Positions 28,517 through 64,000 of a stretch of 64,000 nucleotides of DNA are shown here, piece after piece. Location of the stretch: contig JANFAH010000028.1 in assembly GCA_024663395.1 (NCBI GenBank), positions 779,344 to 843,343 on the forward strand, read 5' to 3'. The stretch is from Pisolithus tinctorius (lineage: Eukaryota; Basidiomycota; Agaricomycetes; Boletales; Pisolithaceae). The translations under genes were made by a program, and so were the position numbers. The notes beneath the pieces are model-generated. The model ran no database searches and was not told where the DNA came from. It worked only from the letters and a program-made list of their open reading frames with translations. The stretch's first letter is position 1, and each line of letters opens with the position of its first letter.

Positions 28517-30380
<1,864 letters not shown>

Positions 30381-39419: not shown

Positions 39420-42400
39420 TAAGGTGACTGGCAACAGAATTACTGTTTGCACCCCAAATTTCAAGGAAGGTGATCGCATTCAGCTGGCCTCTATGACATG
39501 AGATCTTTTCGTATCCCGTTTAGGATTGAAAACCAACGTGTGCCTCGGTTTCGATGAATACAGGAGGAAATGAAATGGTCACGCCCAGTCGGACTACGAC
39601 GTTGATTATCTATCCAATCACGGGTTTCCTGTGTGATCAGAAACTTGGAATTCGACTTTGAGAAGCCGATGCTCGCATTGGACGCGCAGGACGAGCAGTC
39701 CCTCACAATGTGCATGGAAGGTTGGTGGCATTTAACTGGCCTTTCTTTTCTCAGGGAGCTTCCTCCAGGGTGCCCCGTTTAGAATCCAACATTCCCGGTA
39801 ACGTAACGGCAGCAGGAAGAAGTTACGCCCATTACATGAGCGCCAAGATCTAGGCATGAATGGACTACGATGTCGGTTCTCTCATACACCCTAAGTAGAT
39901 GGGTACTACTTTGCACGGGCGGCAGATCTACAGCCGAAAGACATGGATCATATGTCAGAGTCAACCGTGCACTCCAAATCCATAGTAGGGACCGTGCAGC
40001 TGACCTGCGTAGAGAAGCCTCTTTAGGCTGCTGTGCTAGCTGCCAGCACAGACGATGTAGTATTGCTAGATGGCACCAGGACCGGTTCAACGGGCCAAAT
40101 ATCCTGTCGTAGAAGGTGCGTCCATTCTGGTTGTCAGACGTGAGGCGGCCAGTTGACAAAGTTGAACAATGCGAGAATACTGGCGCTGGCCTCGAAGACC
40201 TACCGCATTCAGCTGATCTTTCTTGTTCTGTAGATTCTGATTCGCACTGGTTTCAACTCAACGTCTCCGGCGGTGCTCGGGCATTGGAGAATCCAGGAAT
40301 AAACAACGCCCAAGACGTGAATGTCAGGAAAGCAACAATTGTGATTCCAACTTTCGTGTACTTCTCCGAAGGCAGTCTCGACCGTGAAACGATGCGACAC
40401 GTAACCTGCGCAGAATGCGGCGTATCGACCTTGCCTTTCTGCGTAAACCCTATGCCGATACATTGAACTCTGGGGGACATGATCTAGCGGAATATTTACA
40501 AGGACACTCCTGGAGCAGTGGGCCCAGATGCGTGGATGCATCGTGTTACCGTCACAGCTGTTCGTTGCAATACTCACATGTGGTGGCGAGGGAGAAAGTG
40601 CGTCCATTCACACCAGATAGCACTGGTGGCTTCCAATTACCGGAAGGATATAACCCCCTCTTATCATTTAAACGGTGACACTCAAGCTGATAAAACGATA
40701 ACTCACAGTTGGGTGGTGATGATTCCATTACGGTGACGGCACCTCTTGCAAAATGTGGGGTAAACACGGCCAGTCAGACGTGTCCTAGCCTCAGGAACTC
40801 AAAAGCCACATGCGATGCTTGTCTTCAACCGTTGGGTGGCGAGTATTATGTCAGTCTTACAGCAACATATCTCCTAGATCAAGTTGCCCGTTCATCACCC
40901 CCGAAAGGATAAATTGGGGTATGCCGTGCCTGCACTGCTGAGCCAGATGCCTGGAACGCGGAGGAAAGCGTGTCTTCAAAGCATTATTCTTACTTCCATT
41001 GAACACGTTAATATCATGTGAGCATGTGAGTGGAGAACCCTACCGGCTGCCGCTTTCCAACTATCTTCTCGGGCTTCTCTGATGGGGAAAACATACCGTT
41101 TTGTCCGTGGTCAGGAGGCCAGCCGCGCAGGTTAACAATCCCATGTTGGTGCTGGTGCATCGCAAGCATTGCGATTTCGCCAGATATAGATCAAGATTGT
41201 AACGCTCGTAAGTATAAAAGAGGTTTGTAGACGTGTTCTCAATCCAGGACCACTGTAACTCACACATCTATTGTTAACTCCTCTCAGGTTCTTTCAAGTC
41301 AACATGTCCAACGATATTGCTCAAGCTGCGGCGTACATCAAGTCGGCGACCTTAGCGCCACTCAAGGTCGGCCTCTACTCCAGGGCTAAAGTTCTCGAGG
41401 AAGTTGGAGGTGTGTAGGCGACCTCATATAATCGTCCTATGAAATCAATGATGGTCTGCATACTAGACCGTGGAAAGTATTTGGGTGAGCCCGGTCAGGA
41501 CGGTGCTGCTGCCGTCGGTGGCACCTTGGTCTCTGTCCTTGCCGACCTCACCGGGCTAAACCGCGTCAGTACACCTTCGTCAAGATGATGACAAGTATTG
41601 ACGCCTCATTTGCATTTGCTATCATTTAGACGGACGTTGCCAATTCCCTCGAGTTCGCCTCTCGCGTGGCCGCCAAGGAAGTGGGGAGCGATGACCATAC
41701 CGAGGCATACTGGAATGCATTCAAGACGTCTATTTTCCAAATTGGATGGTTCAAGCAGGCTGACGAGTGGTCTTCGGATTTCGTTGATGGCACAACAACC
41801 GGTGCCGAGAACTTCAGCGACTATGTGATCGCAAATGTCAGAAACGACCCACTCTATTCCGAGGCAGAAAAATCAGTTGTTATTCGAGCCATGGAATCGC
41901 TTCGAAGCCAGGCAGAAAAGCGCGCATTCTTCAGGAGCTTCACCGCTGGCGGTACCAAGGGGTCCTTCGGTGTTAACGCTGCATCGTATGTATTCCTCCG
42001 CTGCTTTTTTTCGACGTTTCACTAATTCTCTGCAAGGGTTACAAATGGAGCACTTGTAATGCGTTTCTCTGCATTTACATTCGATTGCAGTGCCGTGGTG
42101 GATGATTATCTGATCTTCAGCATCAAGAACATCAAAGCTAATGTGCGAAAGGGTATGTAAGCACGCTTGTCATCCCCCGCCCCCCAACACATTTATTATG
42201 TCGCAGATAACGTGGAGGCTGCCGCGAATCAGAGAACCATCGACGCGGTCAGGCAGCAAATCGAAGATAAATTGAACCAGGCGGCTGGTGATTATATCGA
42301 CGGTGTGGATATCTGAGTGGTTGCTTTTTGGCGATTTGTACTCGTGTCTCGATTGTATTTGTGCAAGTTTAAAGCGTGCTGATGTGATGTGGCAATTTTG

Positions 42401-42545
42401 CTGGTCTCTCTTGGTTAAGAGCATGGCCGTGGAGTTCAGTAATGGGTGGCACGAGTCTAGGCATCCCGTAGCCGAGTACGTTGTGCCAGTAATTGATGAG
42501 TGGCACATTCACTTGCTCCACAATAATACGACTTTGGGGAGAGCT
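39420..42545. repeat. Segmental duplication, copy 1
   Basis: Colinear with about 48965-52080, same orientation, with scattered substitutions and small gaps. The junction is near GACCGCATTCAGCTG/GATCGCATTCAGCTG. The 1.8 kb before the gene (39420-41300) is conserved between copies but every frame on both strands is broken; FDFEK-LxL...DEQSL text recurs in both, without a family that I recognise. Confidence 0.82.
41304..42316 (+). CDS. Unnamed 261-residue protein, copy beta
   Basis: Five exons: 41304-41409, 41467-41564, 41630-41985, 42037-42152, 42207-42316. All have GT/AG borders and the frame stays open (786 bases). N-terminus MSNDIAQAAAYIKSATLAPL; core EYWNAF-type segment AYWNAFKTSIFQIGWFKQADEW; FSDYVIANVRNDPLYSEAEKSVVIRAMESL; a beta-rich GALVMRFSAFTFDC; end GDYIDGVDI. 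No signal peptide or membrane helix is visible, so probably cytosolic. Three paralogues lie within 13 kb. Unlike those, exon 3 lacks the intron after the GWF block, so the intron was lost here. I do not recognise a named family. Confidence 0.75.
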
Positions 42546-43074
42546 TGAACGTTAAAGCGATTGCTCAAGCAGGGTTAGCAGCCGAAAGACAAGAGAACAT
42601 ATTAATAAATCGTAATCTACACCCATGGTTCGTTCCTCACCACACAATAGAGCGGCGATATGTCAATAGGTACCAGGAGCCAATCGCCACTTGCGGCTTG
42701 AAGCATTTTGTGGTCCTGAACAATTCGGGAAAACGACCCCTGTTAAGCGGGCAATCATGGATGTATATATACCAGCTTTTCGAGCTGCGCGCCAATCCCC
42801 TCGATTCTCTCTCTCTATCTGGAAGGCATTTAGCCTCAGTCCGTGACGTGTAATCCTGCAAATGACCATGCCCGACATTCACATTACTGACCGTAAGGGA
42901 TTCCTGGAAACTCAAACCGCGTAGGAGTCTTAAACGACCATAGCTGGCATTGACAATGCCGGGTGTATCCCCAGTCTAAATGACGTAGTAACCGGAAGAA
43001 AGGGATGTAAGTCAGTGTTGGTATCGGTATGTCACCATGATCTCGACGCTCCAGTACTTCGTATAAAGCCTTTT
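42546..43074. other. Spacer between copies beta and gamma
   Basis: No gene seen. Several short frames overlap on both strands without family signatures. Confidence 0.5.
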
Positions 43075-46692: not shown

Positions 46693-49080
46693 ATGGCCAG
46701 TCTGATCAGCTTCCCGACATCTGAGTCTGCCCCCATCCCCGTCCCCTCTCCCCTCGTCTACCTCCCCTTCCGACGCATCTCCCTCCCCGCAGCCTCAGCA
46801 CCTGCCCCTCACCGTGCTTCCATCGTCTCGTCCCAGCTATCGCCACAGCGTAGAACGAGGACAAGGCGCGTGCATCGGCGTACTTCGTCAGACGAAGCGA
46901 GAGATGCGAGACGAGTCAAGATTGTCACAGAGTTCTACGAGACAGAGAAGTCCTATTTCAATGGTCTCGATCTGGTGTACCAAGTGCGTGTGCTCCCCCG
47001 CTCGTCAGCCCACGGCGACCGCTGACGATTACATCACACAGCATTTCCTTTCACCTATCCTTGCATCTCTCAGCACCCCAAATCCTCTTCTCACCCGTCA
47101 AGAATTGGCCACGCTCCTCTCCAACTTCATAGATATCTGGAACTTTCGCCGTACATTTGTGGTTGCATTGTCAGAAAATCTTCGATCCAAGTCGACTTCA
47201 CTCTCCACCGTCCTTCTCGCACATTTTCCCTACCTCTATCTTTACACCCCATTCATAACCTCATTCCCGGCTTCCCTGACATTCCTCATGTCACTCTCTA
47301 GTATTAGCGCCTCGCCAAACCCACGTTTCACAGCCTTCTTGCGCACCCAGGAATCACACCCTCGCTGTGCGCACCTCCGTCTATCCGATTACCTCCTCAC
47401 TCTCGTCCAACGGTGCCCACGCTACCTTCTTCTCCTCAAAGACCTCGTACAAGCCACAGACCCAAGTTCTACTGAATACGAAACCCTCCAGCGAGCTCTC
47501 GGTCTTGTAGAAAAGAGTACGTCCTCCCCCATTTTCATTCGGATGCTTATATCACAATCTCACAATGTTCACTCTCCGAACCACAGTCACGAGCTCCCTC
47601 GACACATCTCTCACGGTACATGCTCAAACACTCTCACTGCTCAATCTCCAACGCAACACGAACAACCTCCCCTCCTCATTATCCCCCCTCGTAACGCCCG
47701 GTCGAGATCTCCTCAAACGTGGCACACTCATTTGCCAAGGGCTTTCTTCCCCTGCCCCCTACGAATTCATTCTCCTGAGTGATCATCTACTTTGGTTATC
47801 TCGCGACGAAACAAACAATAGTCCTGGTCTCCTTGAACAGCGTTCCAGCCCACGCGGCGAGAATGAAAGATGGTTATACGCAGGTCACCTCGATCTCATC
47901 GATTTGGAAGTTGTAATAACTATCGTGCATAATGGTGTGATTCCACGACTTGATGTCCTCAGCCCGCAAGGGTCGTTTGCGTTGTACGCACCAGCAGGTA
48001 TGTATTTGTTCTTGTTATACATCTAGTATATATATGCGTGTCCTACCTTCCTTCTCTTACCCCCTTCCCCCCCTCAGGCTCTGCATCCAAACAACAGAAA
48101 ATATCAGATGAACAAGAAATCCTTGACGCGTGGCTAACATCTCTCCGCGCAGCCCGTGCTGCACGTCTCGCAGCGCTTGCACGAGTGAATCCTGACTCGA
48201 CGTTATCAGCGAGCGGATCTAATGTTCACATCCGGCAGGCATTGAGGGCATTTGCGTATGAAAGCACTGATCCTTGCGAAAACTCGCTGGCGTTTGAGTA
48301 CTTGGCTACGTCTCGACACTCGAGTGATACCGGTAGACTTTCACCTGAAGAGTCTAGGGGAAATGAGTTGCCGCAGATGGCATCAAGAGCAGTGAAACGC
48401 ACAAATGGAGAGCACACATCGACCACTTCCTTCCACCCGTATGGACTCCCGATGCAAAAGCGGACAAGTGCATGCGATGTGGAAGACCCTTTGGATTCGT
48501 CCTGGATCTCAGATTTGAGAGCTTCTTCGGATGGAGGACTGCAAAGGTCAGTGTCGGGGACGACGCCAACACAAAAACAGAGAGTGGGAAGGAGAAGGAG
48601 AGAGGAAGGGGTGCATGGCGACACAAACATCATTGTCGGATATGTGGGAGAGTGGTTTGTGCGGCGTGTTCTGACAAGGTAAGGTAATTGGTTTTCAATA
48701 CTTATATATTTGGTAGGCCATTCATGATTGGAAACTTTCATTAACGCTTCTCTCTCTCTCTCTCTCTCCCTCGCCTACGCTTATAGACATTCTATACTTC
48801 TCGGCTCGACGCAGATTCCTTGGCTAAACCAAAACCTGCGCGTGCGTGTACCGAGTGTTACGATATGACATTTCCTCTTCTTCCTAGCCCCACTTTTCCT
48901 GAGTCTGGCCCAAGCGTCAAGCACAATGTAAAGGACAAGACTGAGAAGTTGGGGCGCAAACAGCAATGCATAGAAAGCGACCGCATTCAGCTGACCTCCA
49001 TGATGTGGGATTTTTTTGTGTCTTGTTTAGGATTGAAAACCAACGTACACCTCGATTTCGATGAATACAGGAGGAAATGA
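46693..49080 (+). CDS. RhoGEF-PH-FYVE protein, 3' end replaced by a duplicated segment
   Basis: Exons: 46693-46983, 47042-47516, 47587-47997, 48078-about 48400, then a FYVE exon ending 48678, then 48787 onward. The DH domain runs from VKIVTEFYETEKSYFNGLDLVYQHFLSPIL through RLSDYLLTLVQRCPRYLLLLKDLV. The PH-like region is RDLLKRGTLICQG...FILLSDHLLWLSR...LYAGHLDLIDLEVV. The FYVE finger is CMRCGRPFG (48470), WRHKHHCRICGRVVCAACSDK (48630-48678), then KTFYTSR...ARACTECYD (48787-48865), which supplies all four Cys pairs. FYVE binds PI3P on endosomes; DH activates Rho GTPases. A frame change just before the FYVE (about 48400) needs an intron or indel. From about 48965 the frame runs into the segmental duplication and stops at 49080. 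Confidence 0.72.
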
Positions 49081-52080
49081 AACGGTCACGCCCAGTCGGA
49101 CTACGATGTCGATTATCCATCCAATCACAGCCTGCCCGTGTGAGCAGCAACTTGGAATTCGACTTTGAGAAGCTGAGGCTCGTATTGAGGGTGCGAGATG
49201 AACAGTCCCTGAGGTACATGGAAGGTTGATGGCATTTAGCTGGCCTTTCTTTTTTCAGGGAGCTCCAGGATGCCCCGTTTAGGATCCAGCCTTACCGGTA
49301 ACGTGACGGCAGCAGGAAGAAGTAAAGCACGCCCGTTGCACAAACTCCAAGGCCTAGGCATGAATGGACTACGATCTAGGTTCTCTCATACACCCTAAGC
49401 TGATGGGTACTACCTTGCATGGGCGGCGAATCTACAGCCGAAAGATATGGATTGTATGTCATCAATCGTGCACTCCAAATTCAGTAGGGACCATGCAGGT
49501 GACTTGTGTAGAAAAGCCTTAGGCTGCTGTGCAAGCTGCTAGTACAGACAATGTAGTATTGTCAGGTGGCACCAGAACCGGTCGAACGGGCCCAGTGTAT
49601 CCTGTCATAGAAAGTGCGTCCATTCAGGTTGTCAGATGTGAGGCAGCCAGTTGACAAAACTGAACGATGCGAGAATACGAATACCAGCAGACCTATCGCA
49701 TTTCGCTAATTTTTGCTATTCTATGGATTCTGATTGGCACTGGTTTCGACTTAACATCTCTGGCGGTGCTCGAGCAACGGAGAATCCAGGAGCAATAACG
49801 CCCAACACGTGAATGCCAGGAAGGCAAACCAACTTTCGTGTACTTCTCCAAAGGCAGCTTGGACCGTGAAACAATGCAACAAGCAACCTGTGCAGAACGC
49901 GGCGTATCGACCTTGCCTTTCTGTGTAAACCTTACGCCGATACATCATTGAATCCTGAAAGATATGATCTAACGGAATATTTACAAGGACACTCTTGGCG
50001 AAGTAGGTCCAGATGCGTGGGCGCATCATGTTACTATCATGGCTTTGCAATACCCACATGCGGTGGCGAGGGAGAAAGTGCGTCCATTCATACCACCCGT
50101 TCCGTAGTTCTCTAGGTGGCACTGGTGGTATAACCCCCTCTCATCGCTTGAACGGTGACACTCAAGCTAATAAAACGACAAGTTACAGTTGGGTGGCGAT
50201 AATGACATTACGTTGACGGCGTCTCTTGCAAAATGTGGGGTAACGTGGCCAGTCAGACTGCGTCCTAGCCTCGGAAACTTGGAAGTTACATGTGATGCTT
50301 GTCTTCAGCTGTTGGGTGGAGTGCTATCTCATTCTTACAGCAACACATCTCCTACATCAAGTTGCCCGTTCATTACCCTCGGAAAGGATAAACTGGGGCA
50401 CGTCGTGCCTGGACCACTGAATCAGGTGCCTGAAACGCGGAGGAGAATGCATCTTCGAAGCACCCCTCTTACCTCCATTGAACACGTCAATGTCATGTGA
50501 GCATGTAAGTGGCGAACCCTACCGGGTGCCACTTTCCAACTATCTTCTCGGCTCCTCTGACTGGGAAAATATACCATTGTGTCCGTGGTCAGGAGGCCAG
50601 TCGCACAGCTTAACAATCCCATGTTGGTGCCGGTGCATCGCAAGCATTACAATTTCACCAGATGTAGATCAAGACTGTAAAGCTCATAAGTATAAAAGAG
50701 GTTTGTAGACGCGTTCTGAATCTAGGACTGCTATAGCTCACACATCCACTGTAAACTCCTCTCAAGTTCTTTCAAATCAACATGTCCAACAATATTGCTC
50801 AAGCTGCAGAGTACATCAAATCGGCGACCTTGGCGCCACTCCAGGTCGGCCTCTACTCAAGGGCTAAAGTCCTTGAAGAGGTTGGAGGTGTGTCGGCGGC
50901 CTCATCTATCGTCCTACGAAATCAATGACGATCTGCATACTAGACCGCGGAAAGTTTTTGGGTGAGCCTGGTCAGGATGGCGCCGCTGCCATTGGTGGCA
51001 CTCTGGTCTCCGTCCTTGCCAACCTCACCGGGCTAAACCGCGTCAGTGCACTTTGTTCAGGATGGTGTCAAGTGTTGACGCCTCATTGGCACTTGCCATC
51101 ATTTAGAGGGACGTTGCCAATTCCCTCGAGTTTGCTTCTCGCGTTGCCGCCAAGAAAGTGGGGGCTGATGACCATACTGAGGCATACTGGAATGCATTCA
51201 AGGCGTGTATTTTCCAAATCGGATGGTTCAAGCTGGATGACCAGTATGTGCTATTGGTTTCTCTGCAGGCATTACGATCTAACCCCATTTCAGGTGGTCC
51301 TCGGATTTCATCGATGGCACAACAACTGGTGCTGAGAACTTCAGCGACTACGTGATCGAAAATGTCAGAAATGACCTACTCTATTCCAAGGCAGAAAAAT
51401 CAGTTGTCATCCGAGCCATGGAATCGCTTCGAAGCCAGGCGGAAAAGCGTGCTTTTTTCAGGGGCTTCACCGCCAGCGGTAGCAAGGGGTCCTTCAGTGT
51501 TAACGCAGCGTCGTATGTACCCCTCCCTGCCTTTTTTTCGAGGGTTCACTAATTCTCTGCCAGGGTTAAAAATGGAGCACTGGCAATGCGCTTCTCTGCA
51601 TTTACATTCAATTGTAACGCCAGGGTGGATGATTATCTGATCTTCAGCATCAAGAACATCAAAGCTGATGTGCGGAAGGGTATGTAAACATACTTGCCAT
51701 ATCTCCAAACTCATTCATTATGTCACAGACAACGTGGACATGGCCGCAAGTCAGGGAATCATCGACGCACTCAGGCCGCATATCGAAGACGCATTGGGCA
51801 ATGTGGCTGGTGATTATATCGAAGGTGTGGATATCTGAATGATTGCTTTTTGGCCATTTGTACCAGTGTCTCGATTGTATCTGTGAAAGTGTAAAGTGTG
51901 CTGATGTGATATGACAATTTTTCTGATTTCTCTTGGTTGAGGATGTGAAGCACTGAAGTTTGGCTCTGAGTGACATGAGCCTAGGCATCCGGTAGCTGAG
52001 TTATATGTTGTGCCAGTAATTGGTGGGCAGACACATTCACTTACTCTATGATGATACGACTTTGGGGAGAGCTTAAAAGT
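48965..52080. repeat. Segmental duplication, copy 2
   Basis: Colinear with 39420-42545. Copy 2 is shorter in the 5' part through small deletions. It carries an intact family gene (50782-51838). Its left edge abuts the RhoGEF gene. Confidence 0.82.
50782..51838 (+). CDS. Unnamed 261-residue protein, copy delta
   Basis: Six exons: 50782-50887, 50944-51041, 51107-51243, 51294-51512, 51564-51679, 51729-51838, giving 786 bases, the same coding length as copy beta. Same blocks as beta: MSNNIAQAAEYIKSATLAPLQVGLYSR; AYWNAFKACIFQIGWFKLDDQ; FSDYVIENVRNDLLYSKAEKSVVIRAMESL; VKNGALAMRFSAFTFNC; GDYIEGVDI. The 50-bp intron 51244-51293 splits the codon before WSSDF and is absent from beta but present in alpha and, with a broken donor, in gamma. 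No stop or shift, so probably functional. Role unknown. Confidence 0.75.
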
Positions 52081-52149
52081 TAAACCCAGATGCAGAAAGT
52101 GTGATGATATGTGGCATTTCTCTGTTCAAGGTCTCATGAAGGCATGTAC

Positions 52150-52910
52150 ATACTAGATGGTTTCTGTAATGGTGGTTAGGGTCCAGGTAACCATAGGGTA
52201 AGAAATCTCTGATTCTAAGGGAATATTTCTATAATGTGGGCCATATAAAGAAGGGTCTTAAGTAGGAAGGAGGGTTAATAGCTAAGTCTAATGAAGCCAA
52301 AGTTGAGTATGGGAGGAAGGAAATGCAGAGAAGCCCATGAAACAACTGTAACAATGAATATGAATAATGGAATATGGATGGAGAATGTGGCTAAACATGG
52401 GCAGTACTACTGATAATACACATGATAGTGTAGATGATGTGTAATGACACAAATTTTGACATGTAGTGTTTGCGTGTTATGGATGAGGTTACATGGATAT
52501 ACTAAGAATAGCAAACTACAAGGATATTATTGATGATATTGCGCAAATGTTAAGCTTCAATATTTGCGTGATTGGTAGTCAATCAATTATATGATGTGAC
52601 CCATGCTACAGTGTGTGACATGAGCTATTTATATAGAACGTTGATGTAATTTGAATTAAATCTACAGATGTGAAGAGTACATATTCAATGAAACAATGGA
52701 TCCACACATGAGTTCTCAGTTCCAATCATAAGATGTGAAGCTGGATGAAGAATGAATATATATGTGATCACATGATTTAAATTCCATGATGCAGAAGTAT
52801 CAACACATAACCGCTGAAAGGACAAGTACATGCAGGATGGACAGAGGTATGATTATAAACTGATTGTGGGGAACTGATTCAGCAGGATGACTCAATGGCA
52901 TCTAATCTAT
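52150..52910 (+). repeat. Subtelomeric long direct repeat, left copy
   Basis: Aligns with 61775-62515 in the same orientation: TGTAATGGTGGTT, GAAATCTCTGATT, AGGGAATATTTCTATAATGT, AACAACTGTAACA, GTGTTTGCGTG and the closing GATTCAGCAGG...GGCATCTAATCTA occur in both in the same order. The pair brackets the recombinase-helicase locus. No coding frames. Confidence 0.82.
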
Positions 52911-52932: not shown

Positions 52933-53520
52933 TTACAAACTCCTGACCATAATTTGGGGGAAATAATGCTGGGAGTCGATAGATATGTCCATTGGGATGT
53001 CCCAGGTGAAATTTGAATGAAATTGGTGGTCAGAAAAAAAATCTACAGGGGGTAGAAGTATGGTCAGACCACAAAGTGGTATCTCTTTGGAAATACTTCT
53101 GGGAGGCTGGAAATCATTTCCATTGTCTTCAGTGGCATTGATAACACCCAGGACATCCATCCCTGGCAAGCTGGCACCCCCTCCTGATGTTACTGGATTG
53201 CCATCCCTGGGGTATGAGGAGGGGATCAGGTATGTCGATGAAACAAATATGGGGACCTTTTTAATGCAATTCTGATGGTCTTGTAATGTCATACAGATGG
53301 GGTAGACATGATTCAGACAGCCAGACCGATCTCTGAAATTGTTTTGATGGAGTGAACATGGGGAGGGGGGGGGGGTAACATATCTTACATGGATATTCTG
53401 ACACCTAGGAATGCTGCAACCATTCTCATCATCTGTTGTGACTTTCAGGCCCTCCAGGACAACCATTCCTGACAAACTTTCATGCTTCCTAATAATATGC
53501 TTTCCGGACTCCACCCTCAC
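52933..53520 (-). other. Unrecognised open frame of 195 codons
   Basis: Open on the - strand between the direct repeat and the satellite. Composition is Pro/Ile/Ser-rich without a motif that I recognise, and a poly-G run (53363-53373) lies inside it. It may be chance. Confidence 0.2.
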
Positions 53521-53535
53521 CTCCGCATGAAACCT

Positions 53536-54140
53536 GCCTTATATGGAAGGTTTCATGCATGAAACCTGCACAGCCACTGCATGAAACCTACACAGCCACT
53601 GAATGAAACCTCACAGCCACTGCATGAAACCTACACAGCCACTGAATGAAACCTCACAGCCACTGCATGAAACCTACACAGCCACTGAATGAAACCTCAC
53701 AGCCACTGCATGAAACCTCTTGGTGAGTGAATGAAACCTACACAGCCACTGAATGAAACCTCACAGCCACTGAATGAAACCTACACAGCCACTGAATGAA
53801 ACCTCTTAGTGAGTGAATGAAACCTACACAGCCACTGAATGAAACCTCACAGCCACTGAATGAAACCTACACAGCCACTGCATGCAACCTCTTAGTGAGT
53901 GAATGAAACCTACACAGCCACTGAATGAAACCTCACAGCCACTGAATGAAACCTACACAGCCACTGCATGCAACCTCTTAGTGAGTGAATGAAACCTACA
54001 CAGCCACTGAATGAAACCTCACAGCCACTGAATGAAACCTACACAGCCACTGCATGCAACCTCTTAGTGAGTGAATGAAACCTACACAGCCACTGAATGA
54101 AACCTCACAGCCACTGAATGCAACCTCCATATAAGGAAAT
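53536..54140 (+). repeat. Subtelomeric satellite, 21/22-bp units in an 86-bp higher-order repeat
   Basis: The basic units are TGAATGAAACCTACACAGCC-AC and variants with CTCACAGCCAC or CTCTTAGTGAG. The CTTAGTGAG variant recurs at 53804, 53890, 53976 and 54062, exactly 86 bp apart. Related units reappear next to the telomere at 63590-63835. Confidence 0.9.
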
Positions 54141-54164
54141 GCACAGCCACAGAGAGCAGAGAAA

Positions 54165-54645
54165 ATAAGCGACCGGTTGCTTATCTGGATTGAAGATGAT
54201 AGGCAGTTGATGAGCAAAAAAGCAGATTACCAAAAGATGTAGTAGACACAGCTACTCATTGCAACTGCCTGAAAAATAGGTGACTGGTTGCTTATCTGGA
54301 TGCAAGGGAAGTGAAGTAGCAAGAAGGCAGCTGACTACTCAGTGCCTGGTGACAGCTGGGAAGAACAAGCTGATTATCTGGACAAGTCAGACACTAGTAC
54401 TGAACACAACTAACACAGCCACTCATTGTGACTGCCTGCAAAATAGGTGACCGGTTGCTTATTTGACTTGTGGCAGAAAGTAAGAAAACCACTGACCAGG
54501 CTGAAGGTAGTTGCCTAATTTGGACATCCAAATGGGGATGACACACCAATTGGGTAGTTTAGGGTGGGTAGAGCCAAATAAATAAAGCTGACTGTGGGAA
54601 ATTTTCCCCTTTACATCTCTGCTTCCTACCACCATCTACCTCACC
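54165..54645 (+). promoter_or_regulatory. Upstream region of the recombinase-helicase gene with three degenerate palindromes
   Basis: Three copies of the P1 palindrome with one to five changes lie at 54165-54184, 54276-54295 and 54443-54462, each followed by TCTGG or TTTGAC. They precede the start codon by 184-480 bp. A role as operator or recombination sites is an inference. Confidence 0.45.
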
Positions 54646-56569
54646 ATGCCCAACTATGTCTGTGCCACCTGTGAAGACACCTTCTCCACCAAGAGTACCT
54701 ACATAGCTCACAGCAAGAAGTGCTCTTCCAAGGCCACCATCCACCTGCCCCACACCAACCAGACTATTGAGTTGCAAAGGAATGACATGGGTGATTTCAT
54801 TTGTAACTGTTCTGCCCTTGGCTGTCCCAAGCCCTTCAAGTATGCCAGCAACCTCAAGTCCCATATCAAGAAGGCTGGTAGTACATGGAAGGGGCCAGAG
54901 ATACAGGTGAGCAGTGGTGGGAAATAGTTTCCTTATTTGGAAACAACTCTGAACATGTTAACAGGGTAATCTACCCATGGGCAAATTTGACTTGGTAAGT
55001 GGCTTCATCCACCAAAAAAATAAGCGACCGGTCGCTTATCTGCCCTTCACAGACCCATGGACAAGGGATTGGAGCTGGACCTAGCAAGGACTTGGTAAGT
55101 GGTATTCTCAGGAGCAAGTGACCAATCACCCATGACATCACTATCACAGACCCATGAGGAGGAGGGCAATGCAGGTGGTCCCAGCAGGGCCAGCAAGCAC
55201 TTGGTGAGTGGCTGGCCCAAGCCAGAATAAGCGACCGGTCGCTTATTCTGCCCAATGTCATTATAGCATGAAGATATCAGTGACAGTGACAGTGGAGATG
55301 TGAGTACCAAGCTTATGGCCATTGGTGACAATGGAATGATGGATGGTCATGGCACACCAGTTCCATCACAGGTCCATTGGATCCCCAGTGAGTAGATGTG
55401 TCGCATCTGTCTATCCATACCCCACAGTGCTAAACAGGGAAACAGATAGCAGAGGATTTTGGGAAGATCCCATCTCCTCAGCAGTTGATCCCACAAGATG
55501 AAATCATGCATTCACCCCCACCACCAGCAGTGAGTGTCATTGCTTCCCCACAAATAAGCGACCGGTCACTTATCCATGGACTGGGAAACCATTCCAGGGT
55601 GACATAAGGATGGTGTCACCTACAGCCAACAAGTCAGCCCCTCCCCCCAAATCCACACAAGCACCAGCACCACCATTACCATCTCTCATAGTGAGTCAAT
55701 CACAGTCAACTTGCTGCAACTAGACTCAAGTTCCTTCAGTCTGCAATTAAAGCCCACAAACAAAACACTGGCAACGTTGCACCATCTTTGGTGTCATTGA
55801 CCAAGACTCCAGGACTCATCACCAATGAGTTTTTGAGTTCACTGGATCTTGCAGTGAATGCAGAGTTCCACTTCCTGGTCTGCCAAGTCTGTCAGATGGC
55901 ATTGGGGGTGGGGGATGTCAAGAGTCATCTAGCAAAGATCCATGGGAGACAGTCAACCCACAGTGAAATGACCCTGAAGCTGATGCTGAATTCATTGGAG
56001 GTGGCTGAACGGCTGCCCACCAACATCAGAGGGCCTAGAACATTGGTCCATGGTTTGAAAGTCCATGATGCCATGGCTTGCAGTCACTGTTCTTTTCTGT
56101 CCAGATCAACAGAGTATCTAAGGAAACATCATTCCAAAGATCACTCGATGGAACCATGACCAAGAAATTGGAGAGCTTGCAAAGTCCAACAGCTGAAGCA
56201 AGGCACAGGGGACCTGCAGGCACTCTGGGAGGTCAAGGATCATGCAGAAAGGCCAAATCAGCCATCAGCACAACAGGCTCTGGTGGACTCTTTGCTCAAA
56301 GAACTGGAGCCCACACTGGAGGTGGTCCAGACACCACTGGATGGTCGCATGGTAAGCCCCTGGTTATTGACAACACAGTGGCATGAGCACCTTGCTGGCA
56401 AGAACATCAGACAGCAGTGTAACCTGGTCATGTTACCCAAGGCAGATGATGAAGACATTCCTGGACTGAGGGAGATGGTGCAAGCATACTATCAAAAGGG
56501 CCTCTCTCTGCTGGAGCACACAGGAGAGATTGTCAAGAAAAGGTTGAATTCCCCCAATCCCATGAAAAG
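54646..56569 (+). pseudogene. Subtelomeric recombinase-helicase gene, part 1: zinc fingers, mini-exons and OrsD-like domain
   Basis: Exon 1 (54646-54906) gives a C2H2 finger (CATCEDTFSTKSTYIAHSKKC) and a second one (CPKPFKYASNLKSHIKK). Seven short exons of 27-93 bases follow, all multiples of three in phase 0: 54965-54994, 55053-55094, 55150-55203, 55267-55299, 55361-55387, 55446-55529, 55598-55690. Exon 55731-56569 encodes an OrsD (DUF3505)-like zinc domain: FHFLVCQVCQMALGVGDVKSHLAKIH ... ACSHCSFLSRSTEYLRKHHSKDH, then SPWLLTTQWHEHLAGK. An in-frame TGA at 56157-56159 interrupts this exon; the same frame continues with family-like text, so it is probably a decayed CGA. The chain splices in frame to part 2 across an intron that holds a P1 palindrome. 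Confidence 0.65.
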
Positions 56570-56621
56570 GTAAGCAGCCATACCTCCACATATAAGCGAC
56601 CGGTCGCTTATTCCTTCCCAG

Positions 56622-58542
56622 TGGCCTGTCAAACACTCCCTTCCACAAGCACCTGTATGAGTCAACCATGAAACAGTACATTGTCCCAGTGGTGATTCTA
56701 CTGGCAATGTTGATCAGACAGCAGTACAGTGGAGGGCCATTCTCTGGCTCAAATCCCAAGCTGCTGGACCTCTTGGCAGTGCTTCGCATTGGACAAGGAG
56801 ACACAGAGGCTTTGCCACTCATCCATGAGTTGCTATTCCAGCTCTGGAGCACAGCATGGAAGCATCAAGGGGACAGGGACATTGTGGACCCCACTGAAAG
56901 GTGTCTTGCCTTGATGACACTCAGAGAAGATGGTGCCTTCAAAGAGCCACACCAGGTCACCCCAATCATAGCCAGGTTGGAGTACTGCATGCGACTCACA
57001 TTTCTCATGGAGATCCACAGTTGCATGCAATCAGACCCCCAGAAGGATGATGAGGAACACTGTTCAGATCTGGAGAACTTCTTTGTGGAGAACACCCGAT
57101 ACACTTTCTCTCGTCTACGTTCCCTGCAACACCGGGCAACCTCCCTGGCCCTGGACACCATGAGCCTTCCACAGGTGTGGTGGACAGACACCAAGACCTG
57201 GAAGACGATGCTCTACCGAGGGGAGCAGGTGGACTTTGCTGATCTTTGCAAGGTCTTTGAGGGTACAGAAGCCAAGCTGGTAGAAGCCTGGGAACAGGGG
57301 ATCTTGATGGGTCAGGACATCAGAGTGGACTATGACAAGATTGCAGAGGACCTGGTCAACAAGGATGTTGGCTACTCCTTTCTGTCTGATGTCAGAAATC
57401 CACAACTTGCAGGTAGGGGTAGGTTGGTGAAGCACTTCCTAGAAGATGAGGAGATGTTTGCCCACTTTGCCATGGTCAGGCAGGGAGCCATTGTATGGAA
57501 CACAGGTGCCCTTCAAGCATGGTTGAAGAAGTATGCAGAGCTGCAAAGCTTGCTACTTTTGCGAGCCCAGATGCTCAGCGGTGCACCGAGTCGTGGCACA
57601 GAGCTCACTGCGATGACCTATCGCAACACTCAGACCCGACCAACTCGGAACCTGGTAGTGCTGGGGAAGCATGTCTCCCTGCTCTGTCAATACCTCAAGA
57701 CCACAGCATTGACAGGGAAGGACAAGCTGATCCCTCATGCCTTGGATGCCATCACCAGCGACATCTTGGTACAGGACCTAGCCTTGGCACGACCCTTTGC
57801 AGAGATTGCAGCCAAGGCATGCTTCCCAGACAAGCCAGAGGTGGTGGACCTTTATCGAAACCATGTCTTTGTCAACTTTGACCGCCTCTTTGACTCAAAG
57901 GACCTCTCATTGATCATGAGCAAGCACAGCCTTCCCATCATGCACTTTGGGCTGACCATCAATTCATGGCGACACATCCAAACAGCATGGAAACGAAAAC
58001 TTGGCTGTGCAGTGGAGGATGTGATAGAGATGGACAGGGAAGACAATGTGGAAGCCCTGCAGGCAGGCCATAGTCGGTCTACCGAAAACCGAGTGTATGG
58101 GATCAGTGTGGAAGCTCTAGCTGGAGCTGCAGAGGATGTGCTACCTGCATACCTCAATGCCAGCATGGAATGGCAAAGGCACTGCCAGGTGCCAGTCAGT
58201 GGCCAGTCAACATCATACAAGACTGTACAGGCACACCCCCCATCACCACCCCCATCCCCAACTGCTCCACCAGCACCTGAGCCCAGGGAAAACAAGCGAC
58301 CGGTCGCTTATTCCATGCCAACCAAGGCAGTCCAAAAGGCCATGGTAGATGCAGTGGTGGCCAAACTGCCATCCACAGATGAGATTGCAACCAAGGTGAT
58401 GGACAAGCTGATGCCTGCACTGAAGGGAATGTTGCAGGAGGTGTTTCAATCCACCACAGGAGGTCCATCAGAGAGGACAGACAAAGGAAAAGGGAAGGAG
58501 AGGGAGAAAGAGCAAGGGCAGAGTACCAGTCATGGTTGGTAA
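56622..58542 (+). CDS. Subtelomeric recombinase-helicase gene, part 2: tyrosine-recombinase-like domain
   Basis: Exon from 56622 (phase 2 join AG|T giving Ser). From the codon at 56668 the frame has 624 residues. Residues 300-480 carry a tyrosine recombinase signature: R309 in GAPSRGTELTAM (compare G-x-R-x-x-E-L), K344 in YLKTT, R435 in TINSWRHIQTAWKR (the HxxR box with Asn for the first His), H468 in QAGHSRSTENRVYG, and Y477 nine residues after H468, the same spacing as in XerD/Cre-type enzymes. The N-terminal 300 residues (TMKQYIVPVVILLAMLIRQ...) would be the core-binding part. The C-terminus is Pro-rich, with KRPVAY encoded by a P1 palindrome (58292-58311), and ends in a basic/acidic tail. 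The assignment is from motifs; a profile search would settle it. Confidence 0.7.
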
Positions 58543-58683
58543 CACCCATGTCAGATGATTGTCAGAAATTAAATCCATTCTAGCCAGGGCCCCATCTGGA
58601 ATAAGCGACCGGTCGCCTATCTGGGACCACAGCGATGTTGAACTCGAGCAGACAGACGTACATGGTAAGACCAGACAAAACAT

Positions 58684-59835
58684 TTGCCAGTAGATGAGTC
58701 CCTAACATGGCCTTTCACAGTCCAGTCTGCAGAACCCAGCACAAGTGACCAGTCAGCTACCTTGGATCAGGCACTGCAAACAATGCAGGGCCTACTGAGG
58801 AACCCATCAGCAAGCTGGAAATCAAAGGAACAGCATGCCTGCATGGCAACAGTACTCAAAGGGGAAACAGACCTGGTAGCAGTGCTGGGTACTGGAGCTG
58901 GCAAGTCCATGCTGGCAATCATTCCAAGCATGGTGCAACCAAAGGAAGCCACAGTGTTGGTCTTGCCTCTAAATTCTCTGATGCTGGACTACCAACGACG
59001 ACTGGAGGAGTTCAGAGTGCCATACCAAGTCTATGGAGCAGACAAACCCTTGAGCTCATCCACCAATTTGATTCTGGTCACAGCAGACAGGGCATTGACA
59101 TCACAGTGGAGGTCTGCCCTGGCAATGCTGAACCAAAGCAAGAGGGTGGCCAGGCTGATATTTGACGAGGCCCACATTCCACTGATGTCCAAAGACTATC
59201 GCATGGCCTTCCAAAGCATCCACCAACTACGAAGCATCCCAATGCAACTAGTGCTGTTGAGTGCCACCCTTCCAAGTTGGTGCATAGAGGAGGTCAAGAC
59301 CACCTTCCAGCTAGTGCAACAAACCAAGGTCATCCGACAAAGTACAGACCGAGCAGAACTCAGCTATCACTTGGAAAGGGTACCAGTCCACTCCATACAT
59401 CGACGAGTGGCAGAAGTGTTGGAGGAGGAAGGCTCACTCTGGGAAGAAAGGGACAGAGCCTTGGTGTTTGTGACATCCATAGCAGCTGGTCAGCATCTAT
59501 CACACATGACAGCATATCCATTCTACAATGGAGACAAGGGGACCTCTGACGAGGACCGACGATGGATATACCAACAGTGGATCAAAGGATTCTCCAAGGT
59601 TCTAATTGCGACCACTGCCTTCAGCGCTGGGAACGACTACCCTCACGTGCGGACAGTCATACACATGGACCGACCATTTGACATGGTGGACTACATCCAA
59701 GGACAGGGCAGAGCAGGTCGAGATGGGCAGGCAGCCAACTGCTATACGATCATTCCACCGACATCGACACTACCCAACATACAGACCATGGGGCTGGAAG
59801 GGGAGGCCAGATGGTTAGGTTATGGGCCCCCGTAG
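58684..59835 (+). CDS. Subtelomeric recombinase-helicase gene, part 3: RecQ-type helicase core
   Basis: The exon probably begins near 58722 after an AG; no ATG opens it, so it is joined by splicing to part 2. Motifs in order: Q-like KEQHACMATVLKGETDLVAVLGTGAGKSML (Walker A, 58880-58910), LILVTADRAL, LIFDEAHI (DEAH box, 59157-59180), LLSATLP (motif III), ALVFVTS, VLIATTAFSAGNDYPHVRTVIHMDRP (motif V), and YIQGQGRAGRDG (motif VI, 59693-59728). It is a superfamily 2 RecQ-like ATPase without RecQ-Ct or HRDC domains, as in fungal telomere-linked helicases. It ends 106 residues after motif V begins, slightly short, possibly cut by subtelomeric repeats. Confidence 0.85.
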   Translation: MPVDESLTWPFTVQSAEPSTSDQSATLDQALQTMQGLLRNPSASWKSKEQHACMATVLKGETDLVAVLGTGAGKSMLAIIPSMVQPKEATVLVLPLNSLMLDYQRRLEEFRVPYQVYGADKPLSSSTNLILVTADRALTSQWRSALAMLNQSKRVARLIFDEAHIPLMSKDYRMAFQSIHQLRSIPMQLVLLSATLPSWCIEEVKTTFQLVQQTKVIRQSTDRAELSYHLERVPVHSIHRRVAEVLEEEGSLWEERDRALVFVTSIAAGQHLSHMTAYPFYNGDKGTSDEDRRWIYQQWIKGFSKVLIATTAFSAGNDYPHVRTVIHMDRPFDMVDYIQGQGRAGRDGQAANCYTIIPPTSTLPNIQTMGLEGEARWLGYGPP

Positions 59836-60250
59836 GGTGGACTTTTCGGCCAACCCTGGGGCTGTGCTGACCCTACACCTAACCCCACGCACTTCCTATT
59901 TGGGCACTGGGGTTCCGTATATGGTAACAAGAGCCCCTATTGCATCATAAGGAAGGGGGTGAGCGATCATGTGATTGGCAGCTTTGGCCGTCCAGGACGG
60001 CCACCAGCCTGATGGGCTCATGATCATGTGACTGCACCCTCCATCATGCAGTGTGGCCATCTTGGACGGCCATCCTGCACTGTGGTTGGCAAGTCACATG
60101 ACCGAAGTGCACTCACACCGCTTCGCCGTCCAAGACGGCCACCCCCACACCATGGACACCCAAGCCATGTGCTGAAGTGGACAGCCAACCAATCATGTCA
60201 TTACTGCTTTGTAGTTAATGATGTACCTGTACAAGTAATAATGGTGATTT
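59836..60250. other. Downstream region with P2 palindromes, no gene
   Basis: Three GGCCGTCC-type palindromes (59986, 60055, 60125) and several ATCATGTGA/GTCACATGAC motifs. No protein-like frame. Confidence 0.5.
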
Positions 60251-61697
60251 ATTGTAGCATAGTTACACTGGGCAGAGGGCCCAAACAGACCTGGCCGTCC
60301 ATGACGGCCATCGCAGACGGGGGATTTGTGGTCATGTGATCATATCCCCACGCCCGCCTCTACACAGTGTGGCCGTCCAAGACGGCCATCGCAGACGGGG
60401 GAGTTTGTGGTCATGTGATCATATCCCCACGCTCACCTCTACACAGCGTGGCCGTCTTGGACGGCCAGATGCGCTACGGACGTGATGGTCACATGACCCA
60501 ATACCCACGCACCATTTGGCCGTCGAAGATGGCCAGATACACAAGCTTATATCAGAGCATAGTACAGGAATACTACTATTTCATGAATGCTATTGTATTG
60601 TAGTGTAGCATAATGGATAGACTGGGCAGAGTGGCCCAAAACATGTCGGACCAGGAGAACGCAATGTAGATGCGACCGTTAGTTGCCAAATATGGTAAAG
60701 TCACATGACCAAAAAAGCGTACACTACTACCCAGCTAGTTACCATCAATATTATTAATACTAGTGATTGGAACAACTGTACTAATAGTAATGTTGTTGTG
60801 TGGCATAGTGAAAAGTGTACCAATAAAAGTTATATTTCATTGTAGCATAGTTACACTGGGCATTGTGGCCCGAAAGCGGCCGTCCAGGACGGCCAGACGG
60901 ACACAGGTGCGCGCGTGAGCCAAAAAAGGAAACATGTTCACGTGCGCGAGCACAACGCTCGACTCGCCATCCTGGATAGTGTGCTGGACACCATACATGT
61001 ATAGTACATTAATATTACTGTTATATCAAAGGAAATGCAGTAGGCACTGTAGTAATACAAGTTCTATTTGATGGAGCATAGTTACATTGGGCAGTGTGGC
61101 CCAAAGAGGGCGTCCAGAGATGCCCGGACACATGCAAGTATGCGCGCGACCCCAAAAAGGAAATACATTCACGCGCACTCTATGCTCGACTGGGCGTCCA
61201 GGACGGCCAGATGCATACTTGCCACAAACCACCGGATAACTACGTTGTAAGATACATTAATATTAATGTTACATCAAAGGAAATGTAAATAATACAAGTT
61301 TATTTGATGTAGCATAGTAAGACTGGGCATTGTGGCCCAAGGGAGGGCATCCTGGACACCCGGACACACACAGGCATGCGTGTGACCCAAAAAAGGAAAC
61401 ATGTTCACGCGCAAACACTACAGTCATAATGGCCGTCCTAGATGGCCATGTATGCACATAAGCATTGGTTATCATATGTAGACATTGGTACTACTATTAC
61501 ACAGCTCAGCCAGTGATACTGAAAAACTACTAATATAATAATAACATGGTATTGTGTTGTAGCATAATGAAATTGGGCAGAGTGGCCCAAGAGATGGCCG
61601 TCCAGGACGGCCGGATGCACACAGGTGCGCGTGTCACTCTCAAAAGGGAATATATTCACGCGCAAGCACCATGCACATCTGGCAGTCTTGGACGGCC
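59986..61697. repeat. P2 palindrome family, GGCCGTCCAGGACGGCC
   Basis: At least twelve copies (59986, 60055, 60125, 60293, 60371, 60450, 60518, 60878, 61192, 61431, 61596, 61681), with centre variants CAGG, CAAG, CTTG and CTAG. Often 10-60 bp from GTCACATGAC or ATCATGTGAT. Absent from the rest of the window as far as I can see. Confidence 0.85.
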
Positions 61698-61790
61698 ACA
61701 CGCAACACAGGCACGATGGTCATGTGACTGCATCCCACACACTGTGAGGTTGTCTTGGACAGCTGGACATACTAGGGGTTTTTTGTAATG
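60251..61790 (+). repeat. Subtelomeric tandem repeat of about 235 bp containing P2 palindromes
   Basis: The anchor GTAGCATAGTTACACTGGGC (with variants) recurs at 60254, 60605, 60842, 61071, 61309 and 61559; the last five are 229-250 bp apart. Each is followed by GTGGCCC, a GGCCGTCCAGGACGGCC-type palindrome, a CACGCGC-rich stretch with AAAAAGGAAAC, and an AT-rich TAATATTA end. Units are diverged but colinear. Confidence 0.82.
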
Positions 61791-62515
61791 GTGGTTCGGG
61801 TTAAAGCAAGGTTGGGGTGAGAAATCTCTGATTTTAAGGGAATATTTCTATAATGTGAGCCATAAAAAGCAGAGTGTTAGGTGGGAGAGAGGGGCAACAC
61901 ACATGTCTGATGAAGCCTAAGTTGGTGATGAAAGGAAAGAAATGATGAGCATCCACCAAAACAACTGTAACATTGAACATGCATAATGGTATGTGGATAG
62001 AGAATGTGGATAAACATGGATGGTGCTACTGATAATATACATGATATTGTAGATATTGTGTAATGACGCAAATGTTGAAGTATAGTGTTTGCGTGATACA
62101 GACGAGTTTGTATGGATCTAAAATGAATGGCAATGTATAGTGATATGATGGATGATAATGCGCAAATGTTGAACTTCAATATTTGCATGATTGATAGTGA
62201 ATCAATGATACGACATGACCTGAAATACAGTGTGTGATGTGAACTATATATAGAGCGTCTGGACCATTGATGTAATGTGAAGAGTATGTATTTAATTAAA
62301 CAGCGGAACAACACGTGACATTTAGGTTCCGATCATAAGATGTGAATGAGGATGAAGAATGAATATATGTGATCACGCAGTTTAAATTAAATGGAGAAGG
62401 AGTATTGAAACTTAAACGCTGACAACACAAGTAGGTACAGGATGGACACAGGTACGATAGTTTGCTGAATGAGGTGAATTGATTCAGCAGGCCGACTCGA
62501 TGGCATCTAATCTAG
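61775..62515 (+). repeat. Subtelomeric long direct repeat, right copy
   Basis: Partner of 52150-52910, same orientation. No coding frames seen. Confidence 0.82.
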
Positions 62516-62639: not shown

Positions 62640-63010
62640 GACAACCGTGCTTGAGACGATATGCCACCTAATAATCTAAACCGTCCGCCCAGTTCCAGTC
62701 TCGAAAGCGCCTACTATAAAAGGAAATTCAAAAAAGCGCCTACTATATATGGTAATTGCACAACTCATCGATGACTTGTGCAGGCAAAAACATGTAAAAA
62801 ATCACACAGCCACTGAAAGCTGTGTATAGCCACCGAAAGCGCCTACTATATATGGACGAAAGCTGTGTATAGCCACAAAAGCGCCTACCATATAAGGAAA
62901 CAGGTTTTATATAGCACAAGGCAACTACACAACTTATCGATGAGTTGCAATGGCCTGACACCAAAAAAATCACACTGCCACTGAAAGCTGTGTATAGCCA
63001 CTGAAAGCGC
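62640..63010 (+). repeat. AAAGCGCCTACTATATATGG repeat cluster with P3 palindromes
   Basis: GAAAGCTGTGTATAGCCAC and AAAGCGCCTACTATATATGG alternate four or five times. Two P3 palindromes sit inside (62757-62782 and 62927-62948). Confidence 0.75.
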
Positions 63011-63046
63011 CTAATAATCTACTTTCTGGAGTCTGCCCCAGACTCC

Positions 63047-63589: not shown

Positions 63590-63835
63590 ATGAATGCAAC
63601 CTACACAGCCACTGAATGCAACCACATAGCAGGTGAAGGCAACCTACACAGCCACTGAGGGCAACCTCACAGCCACTGAAGGCAACCTCCAAATAAGGCA
63701 GGTTGCCTGAAGGCAACTGTACAGCCACTGCATGCAACCTCACAGCCACTGAATGCAACCAACACAGCCACTGCTTGCAAGCTGCACAGCCACTGAAGGC
63801 AAGCTCACAGCCACTGAGGGGAACCACCATATAAG
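63590..63835 (+). repeat. Telomere-proximal satellite related to 53536-54140
   Basis: Units such as GAATGCAACCTACACAGCCA and GAAGGCAACCTCACAGCCAC share the ACACAGCCACTGAATG core with the inner satellite. No gene. Confidence 0.85.
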
Positions 63836-63843
63836 GAAATGCA

Positions 63844-64000
63844 GGTTAGGTTAGGGTTAGGTTAGGTTAGGGTTAGGTAGGTTAGGTTAGGGTTAGGTTA
63901 GGGTTAGGTTAGGGTTAGGTTAGGTTAGGTTAGGGTTAGGTTAGGTTAGGGTTAGGTTAGGGTTAGGTTAGGGTTAGGTTAGGTTAGGTTAGGGTTAGGT
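63844..64000 (+). repeat. Telomere or telomere-proximal repeats, mixed TTAGGG and TTAGG
   Basis: About 157 bp of GGTTAGGTTAGGGTTAGG-type sequence to the last base, G-rich on the + strand as expected for a right-hand chromosome end. TTAGGG and TTAGG units are intermixed. Confidence 0.93.

What the first reader, a model, noticed from the sequence alone, without database searches (positions are those of the whole stretch)
54646..59835. One subtelomeric gene joins zinc fingers/OrsD, a complete tyrosine-recombinase active site and a RecQ-type helicase
Seen: R309, K344, R435, H468 and Y477 in the 56668-58542 frame, with His-to-Tyr spacing of nine residues as in XerD. Helicase motifs I-VI lie directly downstream, and C2H2 plus OrsD-like zinc modules upstream. 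Known: fungal telomere-linked helicases carry OrsD and RecQ parts; fungal tyrosine-recombinase elements (Crypton, DIRS, Starship) are described, but I know of none that pairs the recombinase with a RecQ helicase. Inference: this may be a telomere-homing mobile element, or a recombinase-helicase used to copy or resolve chromosome ends.
Basis: partly seen in the sequence, partly recalled or inferred. Interest (0 to 1): 0.93.

Follow-up and report, generated by a model that had tools for sequence, protein, structure and literature searches.

The report
Telomere-facing element with recombinase–helicase protein
A repeated DNA element at chromosome ends of a mushroom-forming fungus encodes one protein that joins zinc-binding parts, a previously unnoticed DNA-recombining enzyme domain and a DNA helicase, which suggests that some of the long-unexplained chromosome-end helicase genes of fungi may belong to mobile elements.

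The parts
53488..53499 (+). Inner (centromere-side) terminus of the unit, CCTAATAATATG
   Evidence: 26 distinct flanks among 29 junctions kept; flank identity at chance up to -1; 48 matches to two terminus patterns in the genome, reversed controls 0
53559..54126 (.). 43-bp satellite array following the terminus
   Evidence: related array again at 63591-63825
54164..54185 (.). Type A palindrome, upstream region
   Evidence: 2 mismatches
54442..54463 (.). Type A palindrome, upstream region, weaker
   Evidence: 3 mismatches
54646..54906 (+). First exon with C2H2 zinc fingers
   Evidence: splice sites inferred from sequence
55019..55040 (.). Type A palindrome inside the proposed intron 54995-55052
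55226..55247 (.). Type A palindrome, perfect 22 bp, inside the proposed intron 55204-55266
55553..55574 (.). Type A palindrome inside the proposed intron 55530-55597
55695..56573 (+). OrsD zinc-module region, broken by the TGA at 56157-56159 in this copy
56591..56612 (.). Type A palindrome inside the OrsD-recombinase intron (about 56570-56631, inferred); lineages B, C and D have their own palindrome (D's degenerate) in the matching intron
56632..58224 (+). Tyrosine-recombinase region (N-terminal helical part and catalytic domain; modelled catalytic part 57178-58224)
57592..57594 (+). Catalytic Arg I (R333 of frame 56596-58542)
   Evidence: R in 178 of 188 letters
57697..57699 (+). Catalytic Lys (K368)
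   Evidence: K in 194 of 195 letters
57970..57972 (+). Catalytic Arg II (R459)
   Evidence: R in 171 of 187 letters
58069..58071 (+). His of box III (H492)
   Evidence: H in 180 of 184 letters
58096..58098 (+). Nucleophile Tyr (Y501)
   Evidence: Y in 182 of 184 letters
58291..58312 (.). Type A palindrome in the coding linker between recombinase and helicase (encodes NKRPVAYS)
   Evidence: lineages B and C have their own palindrome in the corresponding linker
58600..58621 (.). Type A palindrome between recombinase and helicase exons (intron in my model; coding in the annotated model P0182)
58669..59814 (+). RecQ-type helicase core; the C-terminal side is lost in this copy
59815..59842 (.). Junction of the broken gene with a subtelomeric block, with one TTAGG at the joint
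62667..62685 (+). Second terminus (type B, CCTAATAATCTAAACCGTC)
63010..63030 (+). Third terminus (CCTAATAATCTACTTTCTGGA), start of a stretch of satellites running to the telomere
63843..64000 (+). Telomere repeats (TTAGG/TTAGGG mixture), end of contig C28

Best explanation
The gene belongs to a telomere-oriented mobile element. It encodes one large protein in which zinc modules (C2H2, OrsD) and a tyrosine-recombinase domain act on the element's own DNA and a RecQ-type helicase opens or extends the intermediate. The unit has a fixed inner end (CCTAATAAT) and its body faces the telomere. New copies arise when that inner end is joined to a new place, usually a chromosome end, so that the unit becomes the new end. 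The dispersed lineage-specific palindromes are most likely binding sites for a protein that recognises the element. Shown: architecture, YR fold (by model), kept catalytic residues, purifying selection, multicopy state, polarity, recurrent inner end, lineage-specific palindromes. Inferred: catalytic activity, that the YR makes the inner-end junctions, and who binds the palindromes.
Confidence: 0.55

Rival explanations
1. A passive subtelomeric repeat, like yeast Y' elements or known telomere-linked helicases, spread by homologous recombination and break-induced replication between chromosome ends; the protein serves telomere or recombination upkeep and its YR domain works as a Holliday-junction or DNA-nicking enzyme rather than as a transposase.
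For: Contig-end polarity, stacked and truncated units and a TTAGG at a neighbouring joint are what exchange between ends would leave; the terminus begins with CCTAA; the helicase core is RecQ-like.
Against: A joint at the same letter with 26 distinct flanks, in types A and B whose bodies differ beyond the first 12 bp, is not expected from homology-driven exchange.
Confidence: 0.3
2. The palindromes are sites of an element-encoded recognition or anti-silencing factor, as in Arabidopsis VANDAL/VANC, not recombination sites; the zinc modules or the YR fold may be the reader. This concerns the palindromes and can be true together with the best explanation.
For: The VANC paper (PMC5735166, passages read) describes short family-specific motifs in introns and upstream tandem repeats, evolving together with the protein, and also present in an unrelated transposon (AT9TSD1). 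Here palindromes lie mainly outside the large exons (16 of 17 sites in L010 by my exon limits; 15 of 17 if the site coding in P0182's model is counted as exonic), in flanking arrays spaced 107-170 bp and, for types B, C and D, elsewhere too.
Against: The VANC motifs given in that paper are not palindromes, and VANC acts by demethylation in a plant; no evidence of silencing or its relief was available here.
Confidence: 0.35
3. The YR fold is a non-catalytic DNA-binding remnant, as in phage regulators of the MrpR/YopR kind.
Against: Arg, Lys, Arg, His and Tyr are kept together in 160 of 175 sequences, which a binding-only domain would not need.
Confidence: 0.12
4. Chance resemblance, or unrelated adjacent genes.
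For: No Pfam, PHROG or PDB sequence match to a recombinase (none among the 25 families listed).
Against: Fold, conservation and one-gene models in several genera.
Confidence: 0.02

Closest known systems
Fungal telomere-linked helicases (TLH; Ustilago UTASa/UTASb, Schizosaccharomyces tlh, Magnaporthe TLH1)
   Same: Subtelomeric, multicopy, RecQ-like helicase; an OrsD domain is reported for UTASb (PMC10532341, passages); one relative here is annotated tlh2 (Grifola frondosa).
   [quoted passage not shown] Whether the classic TLHs carry the YR domain was not tested (none was seen among the listed hits).
Crypton, DIRS and Starship (DUF3435) elements
   Same: Eukaryotic elements with a tyrosine recombinase (recalled).
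   Different: Here the YR is fused to OrsD and a RecQ helicase, in a telomere-oriented unit with one fixed inner end; the window's exon has no Pfam match to an integrase or DUF3435 family up to E 5.
Yeast Y' subtelomeric elements
   Same: Helicase-encoding units at telomeres, tandem copies (recalled).
   Different: No recombinase domain; spread attributed to recombination (both recalled).
Protelomerases (TelK)
   Different: Much weaker match than Xer or Cre; no hairpin end shown; palindromes lie inside the gene as well.
Arabidopsis VANDAL/VANC
   Same: Family-specific motifs dispersed in introns and upstream repeats; sharing with an unrelated transposon (PMC5735166, passages).
   Different: Motifs given there are not palindromes; no relation between the proteins was tested.

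Membership tests
Tyrosine recombinase superfamily | Catalytic-domain fold | tested here: met
Tyrosine recombinase superfamily | Arg I, Lys, Arg II, His/Trp III and Tyr | tested here: met
   All five (with His III) in 160 of 175 scorable rows
Tyrosine recombinase superfamily | Box-II His or Lys (usual, not universal; recalled) | tested here: not met
   N in 127 of 188 letters, otherwise mainly S, Q, A, R or G. For this reason I call it a YR-fold domain with a variant active site, not a canonical member
Tyrosine recombinase superfamily | DNA cleavage through the Tyr | not testable with these tools
   Needs protein
RecQ-family helicase | SF2 core closest to RecQ | tested here: met
   TIGR00614 E 1.8e-33 on P0182, but 116 bits against a curated cut-off of 219.8; DpdF scores higher (E 2.7e-35, also below its cut-off); BLM, WRN and RecQ best in PDB
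Telomere-linked helicase (TLH) | RecQ-like helicase gene within subtelomeres in several copies | tested here: met
   Window gene about 4 kb from telomere repeats; copies near several contig ends, but also internal (C2)
Telomere-linked helicase (TLH) | Common descent with the classic TLH genes | not tested
   No classic TLH sequence at hand; one hit annotated tlh2
Crypton | YR element with defined ends on both sides (recalled) | tested here: inconclusive
   One end defined only
Starship (captain) | DUF3435 sequence match (recalled definition) | tested here: not met
   Not among the three Pfam families up to E 5 for the window exon nor among the 25 families listed for 50 members at E 0.1 (list may be capped)
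VANC-like anti-silencing system | Lineage-specific motif dispersed in non-coding parts and repeat arrays | tested here: met
VANC-like anti-silencing system | Protein binds the motif and relieves silencing | not testable with these tools
   Needs experiment

The most novel reading that the evidence does not exclude
A site-specific recombinase-helicase that renews chromosome ends: it recognises its own lineage's palindromes and the CCTAATAAT end and attaches telomere-capped terminal units to other chromosome ends, so that each lineage of element, with its own recognition code, competes to be the outermost segment of the chromosome.
Probability: 0.25. Interest if true: 0.95.

Novelty: new variant of a known kind. 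Interest (0 to 1): 0.85.

Why it matters
Subtelomeric RecQ-like helicase genes of fungi have no agreed role; the Agaricus paper notes that strains without them show no telomere abnormality and that they might play another role (PMC7473861, passages). A hidden recombinase domain with conserved catalytic residues in the same protein turns the question from 'what does this helicase do for telomeres' into a testable one: is this a mobile element that uses chromosome ends? The lineage-specific palindromes at matching gene positions give ready substrates, and the inner end gives a joint to look for in long reads.

Tried and rejected
Sequence-only links to known recombinases gave nothing: Pfam on the exon (none among the 25 families listed for 50 relatives), PHROGs, PDB by sequence and by profile. 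IMG/VR contigs: 8 stretches matched a pattern, none confirmed. Viral structure library: weak matches only, best E 0.04, several of them integrases. Classic TLHs of Ustilago or ascomycetes were not seen in the three protein searches (120 of 180, 120 of 203 and all 42 hits listed; about 8000 candidates scored each); this does not show their absence, as the search needs shared words.

Idea dropped: palindromes are exclusive sites of this recombinase. For type A the places listed (first 100 rows; 132 forward matches in all, reversed control 0) are on contigs that also bear a match to the YR gene, except rows near the start of C1; rows at 21.7 kb of C2 are far from that contig's gene matches (5.6 Mb). 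Types B (279, control 2), C (634, control 4) and D (47 with two mismatches, control 4) are spread over more contigs; the B and C patterns differ by two letters, so their counts overlap. I fetched 20 of the 48 exact type C places listed: by eye 13 fall in one repeat family and 7 in another; one of each was compared and matches the window at 19536-19846 and at 15477-15630/30502-30715, in the neighbourhood of frames with reverse-transcriptase and integrase domains. That these are retrotransposons is inferred from those neighbours. Idea tested without result: compensatory symmetric change in the palindrome arms (Fisher P 0.02 over 169 sites, 0.13 over 103 distinct contexts); CpG decay explains the variants as well. 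Idea dropped: the D-to-B joint in C41 lies at a palindrome; on reading, it lies at the CCTAATAAT terminus.

Rows dropped: 26 of 201 rows lacking a letter at one of five positions, 3 of 29 junctions with repeated flanks, and only junctions fitting the body pattern were kept at all, 1 of 48 termini (C69, length unknown). In one search codons with stops were skipped (L021 carries one); L009 and L013, which also carry stops, and L015 and L018 were located but not compared; between-lineage values (0.13-0.20) rest on saturated silent change. A regular-expression test of motif order found 114 of 187 proteins; it was too strict for fragments and variants and was replaced by the alignment count.

Full report
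WHAT THE WINDOW IS. The window is the end of contig C28 (843,343 bp) of a 92.5-Mb, 221-contig genome and ends in TTAGG/TTAGGG repeats. The closest protein is P0001, Pisolithus tinctorius Marx 270, 100% identical over 96% of the query; contig lengths given for other P. tinctorius proteins (6,547,381; 1,046,656; 327,682; 611,571; 586,758) equal those of C2, C23, C61, C41 and C43. P. tinctorius is an agaricomycete of the order Boletales.

THE OBSERVATION. All five residues and the nine-residue His-Tyr spacing are as described. C2H2 and OrsD lie upstream and DEAD/Helicase_C downstream with significant Pfam scores. The copy is degenerate: a TGA at 56157 in the OrsD part, where the seven copies aligned have sense codons, and a break at 59814 that 10 of 10 close copies (L009-L018) do not share. 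An intact relative is annotated in the same genome: P0182, 1825 aa, on a contig of 586,758 bp, which is the length of C43. Its order is OrsD 306-405, YR residues R858, K893, R984, H1017 and Y1026, DEAD 1236-1387 and Helicase_C 1441-1536 (its C2H2 match, 18.4 bits, is below the cut-off of 25.2, whereas the window's first exon scores 32.6).

DISTRIBUTION. In one search, 18 of 120 listed proteins carry OrsD and DEAD in one gene model and 11 of 120 OrsD, DEAD and Helicase_C. One relative is annotated ATP-dependent DNA helicase tlh2 (P0189, Grifola frondosa); its helicase is 39% identical to the window's.

COPIES AND POLARITY. In the own genome the catalytic part matches 32 places; 11 are type A with 94-100% identity over the full query, one is a 93% fragment (C116), and diverged lineages follow at 85% and below. 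Several lie near contig ends, others inside (C2 at 5.6 Mb of 6.5). Where unrelated sequence gives way to the unit, the first letters are CCTAATAAT. Two patterns find 33 and 15 such termini (reversed controls 0). Of 29 junctions read, 26 have distinct flanks whose pairwise identity is 0.22-0.28 at each of the 15 positions before the joint. Facing the nearer contig end: 18 of 18 within 20 kb (13 contigs), 25 of 29 within 50 kb, 28 of 34 within 75 kb. Some termini share flanks, so they are not all independent; two of the six exceptions are on contigs of 86 and 102 kb; and contig ends other than those read were not shown to be telomeres. In C41 a type D gene is cut inside its YR part by the terminus of a type B unit, and in C11 a type B gene is cut by a type A terminus: units are stacked outwards.

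PALINDROMES. A 22-bp palindrome, AATAAGCGACCGGTCGCTTATT, occurs eight times (up to 3 mismatches) at 54164-58621 and nowhere else in the window; expected 0. In the genome its 16-bp core has 132 forward matches with one mismatch allowed and none for the reversed control. The 11 type A copies (window and L009-L018) carry 9 to 21 each in the stretches read, with up to four substitutions. Diverged copies carry others: type B AACTCATCGATGAGTT (C11, C41), type C AACTCGTCGACGAGTT (C23), type D TAGCATACATGTATGCTA (C41). The places correspond: the intron between OrsD and YR has the lineage's own palindrome in A, B, C and D (two, one, one and three letters off the type sequence in the copies shown); the linker after the YR domain has it in A, B and C; the stretch between linker and helicase in A, B and C; and the stretch after the stop in A and C. 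Of 120 predicted proteins scanned, eight from other Pisolithus species show at the linker the peptides that such palindromes would encode: NKQPVAYS in P0006, NSSMS in P0018, P0022, P0026, P0037 and P0067, NSSTS in P0024 and P0076; DNA of those species was not seen, and no protein from outside Pisolithus matched at the linker. Arrays repeat the palindrome at 168-170 bp upstream of the gene in B and at 150 bp upstream in D; in A, rows at 107 bp lie downstream of the gene in L014 and L017 and rows at about 141 bp near contig starts. In the intact copy L010, 16 of 17 sites lie outside the three large exons, which fill 62% of the span (the small 5' exons were not counted, and one of the 16 is coding in the annotated model P0182).

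RESULTS AGAINST THE SIMPLE STORY. Types B, C and D are also found away from these genes (279, 634 and 47 matches, overlapping for B and C), and 20 of 20 type C sites fetched, of 48 exact places listed, lie in two repeat families; one sequence of each was compared and matches the window in the neighbourhood of frames with reverse-transcriptase and integrase domains. So either unrelated elements share the recognition code, as VANC6 motifs are shared with AT9TSD1 (PMC5735166, passages), or a host factor reads it. Arms do not show clear compensatory change.

MECHANISM. Shown: one protein with zinc modules, a YR fold with kept catalytic residues and a helicase; selection; polarity; a recurrent inner end; lineage-specific palindromes. 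Inferred: the protein binds its lineage's palindromes, the YR cuts or joins at the inner end, the helicase opens the duplex or drives copying to the telomere, and the unit becomes the new chromosome end. The main rival is passive spread by exchange between ends; the CCTAA at the terminus and TTAGG at a neighbouring joint keep it alive.

LITERATURE. Of ten searches, eight looked for such a protein or its setting and two for palindromes and anti-silencing. I saw listings, capped (20 of 279; 15 of 18), and passages of five papers; in these I found no paper pairing a tyrosine recombinase with a fungal RecQ or telomere-linked helicase in one protein. Most subscription papers are outside the library. 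PMC7473861 (passages) reports no domain but the helicase core in subtelomeric RecQ helicases of A. bisporus and other fungi. PMC10532341 (passages) reports OrsD in the U. maydis subtelomeric element UTASb. PMC10799480 (passages) and PMC13066641 (one passage) had nothing on this fusion in what I saw.

Noticed in passing
window 59815-60159; L013 (C35): A subtelomeric block starting TTATGGGCCCCC is joined to the helicase gene at different points in two copies but at the same point of the block; one joint has an extra TTAGG. It looks like a telomere-targeted sequence.
   Followed up: partly
window 52145-52909, 61764-62514; C43 (L011): A second block beginning ACTAG recurs after different neighbours.
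   Followed up: no
L071 (C2:5643470): The terminus is followed at once by a near-perfect inverted copy of itself (arms of about 24 bp, judged by eye), as if two inner ends met head to head.
   Followed up: no
window 15525, 30550 and 19537-19696: Type B/C palindromes in repeats that are probably retrotransposons, one of them inside a long reading frame.
   Followed up: partly
window 60000-61700: Repeated GGCCGTCC/GGACGGCC palindromes in the subtelomeric stretch, seen by eye, not counted.
   Followed up: no
window 39466-42556 and 48973-52084: Direct repeat of about 3.1 kb at 82% identity; a RhoGEF-domain frame lies between the copies at 46706-47779.
   Followed up: no
window 30107-30316: Seventy copies of TGA in a row, 99% matches.
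   Followed up: no
window 63843-64000: Telomere repeats mix TTAGG and TTAGGG in one array.
   Followed up: no
P0182, 1170-1545: The best NCBIfam score of the helicase part is DpdF (a phage-defence helicase family by recall), slightly above RecQ, both below their cut-offs.
   Followed up: no
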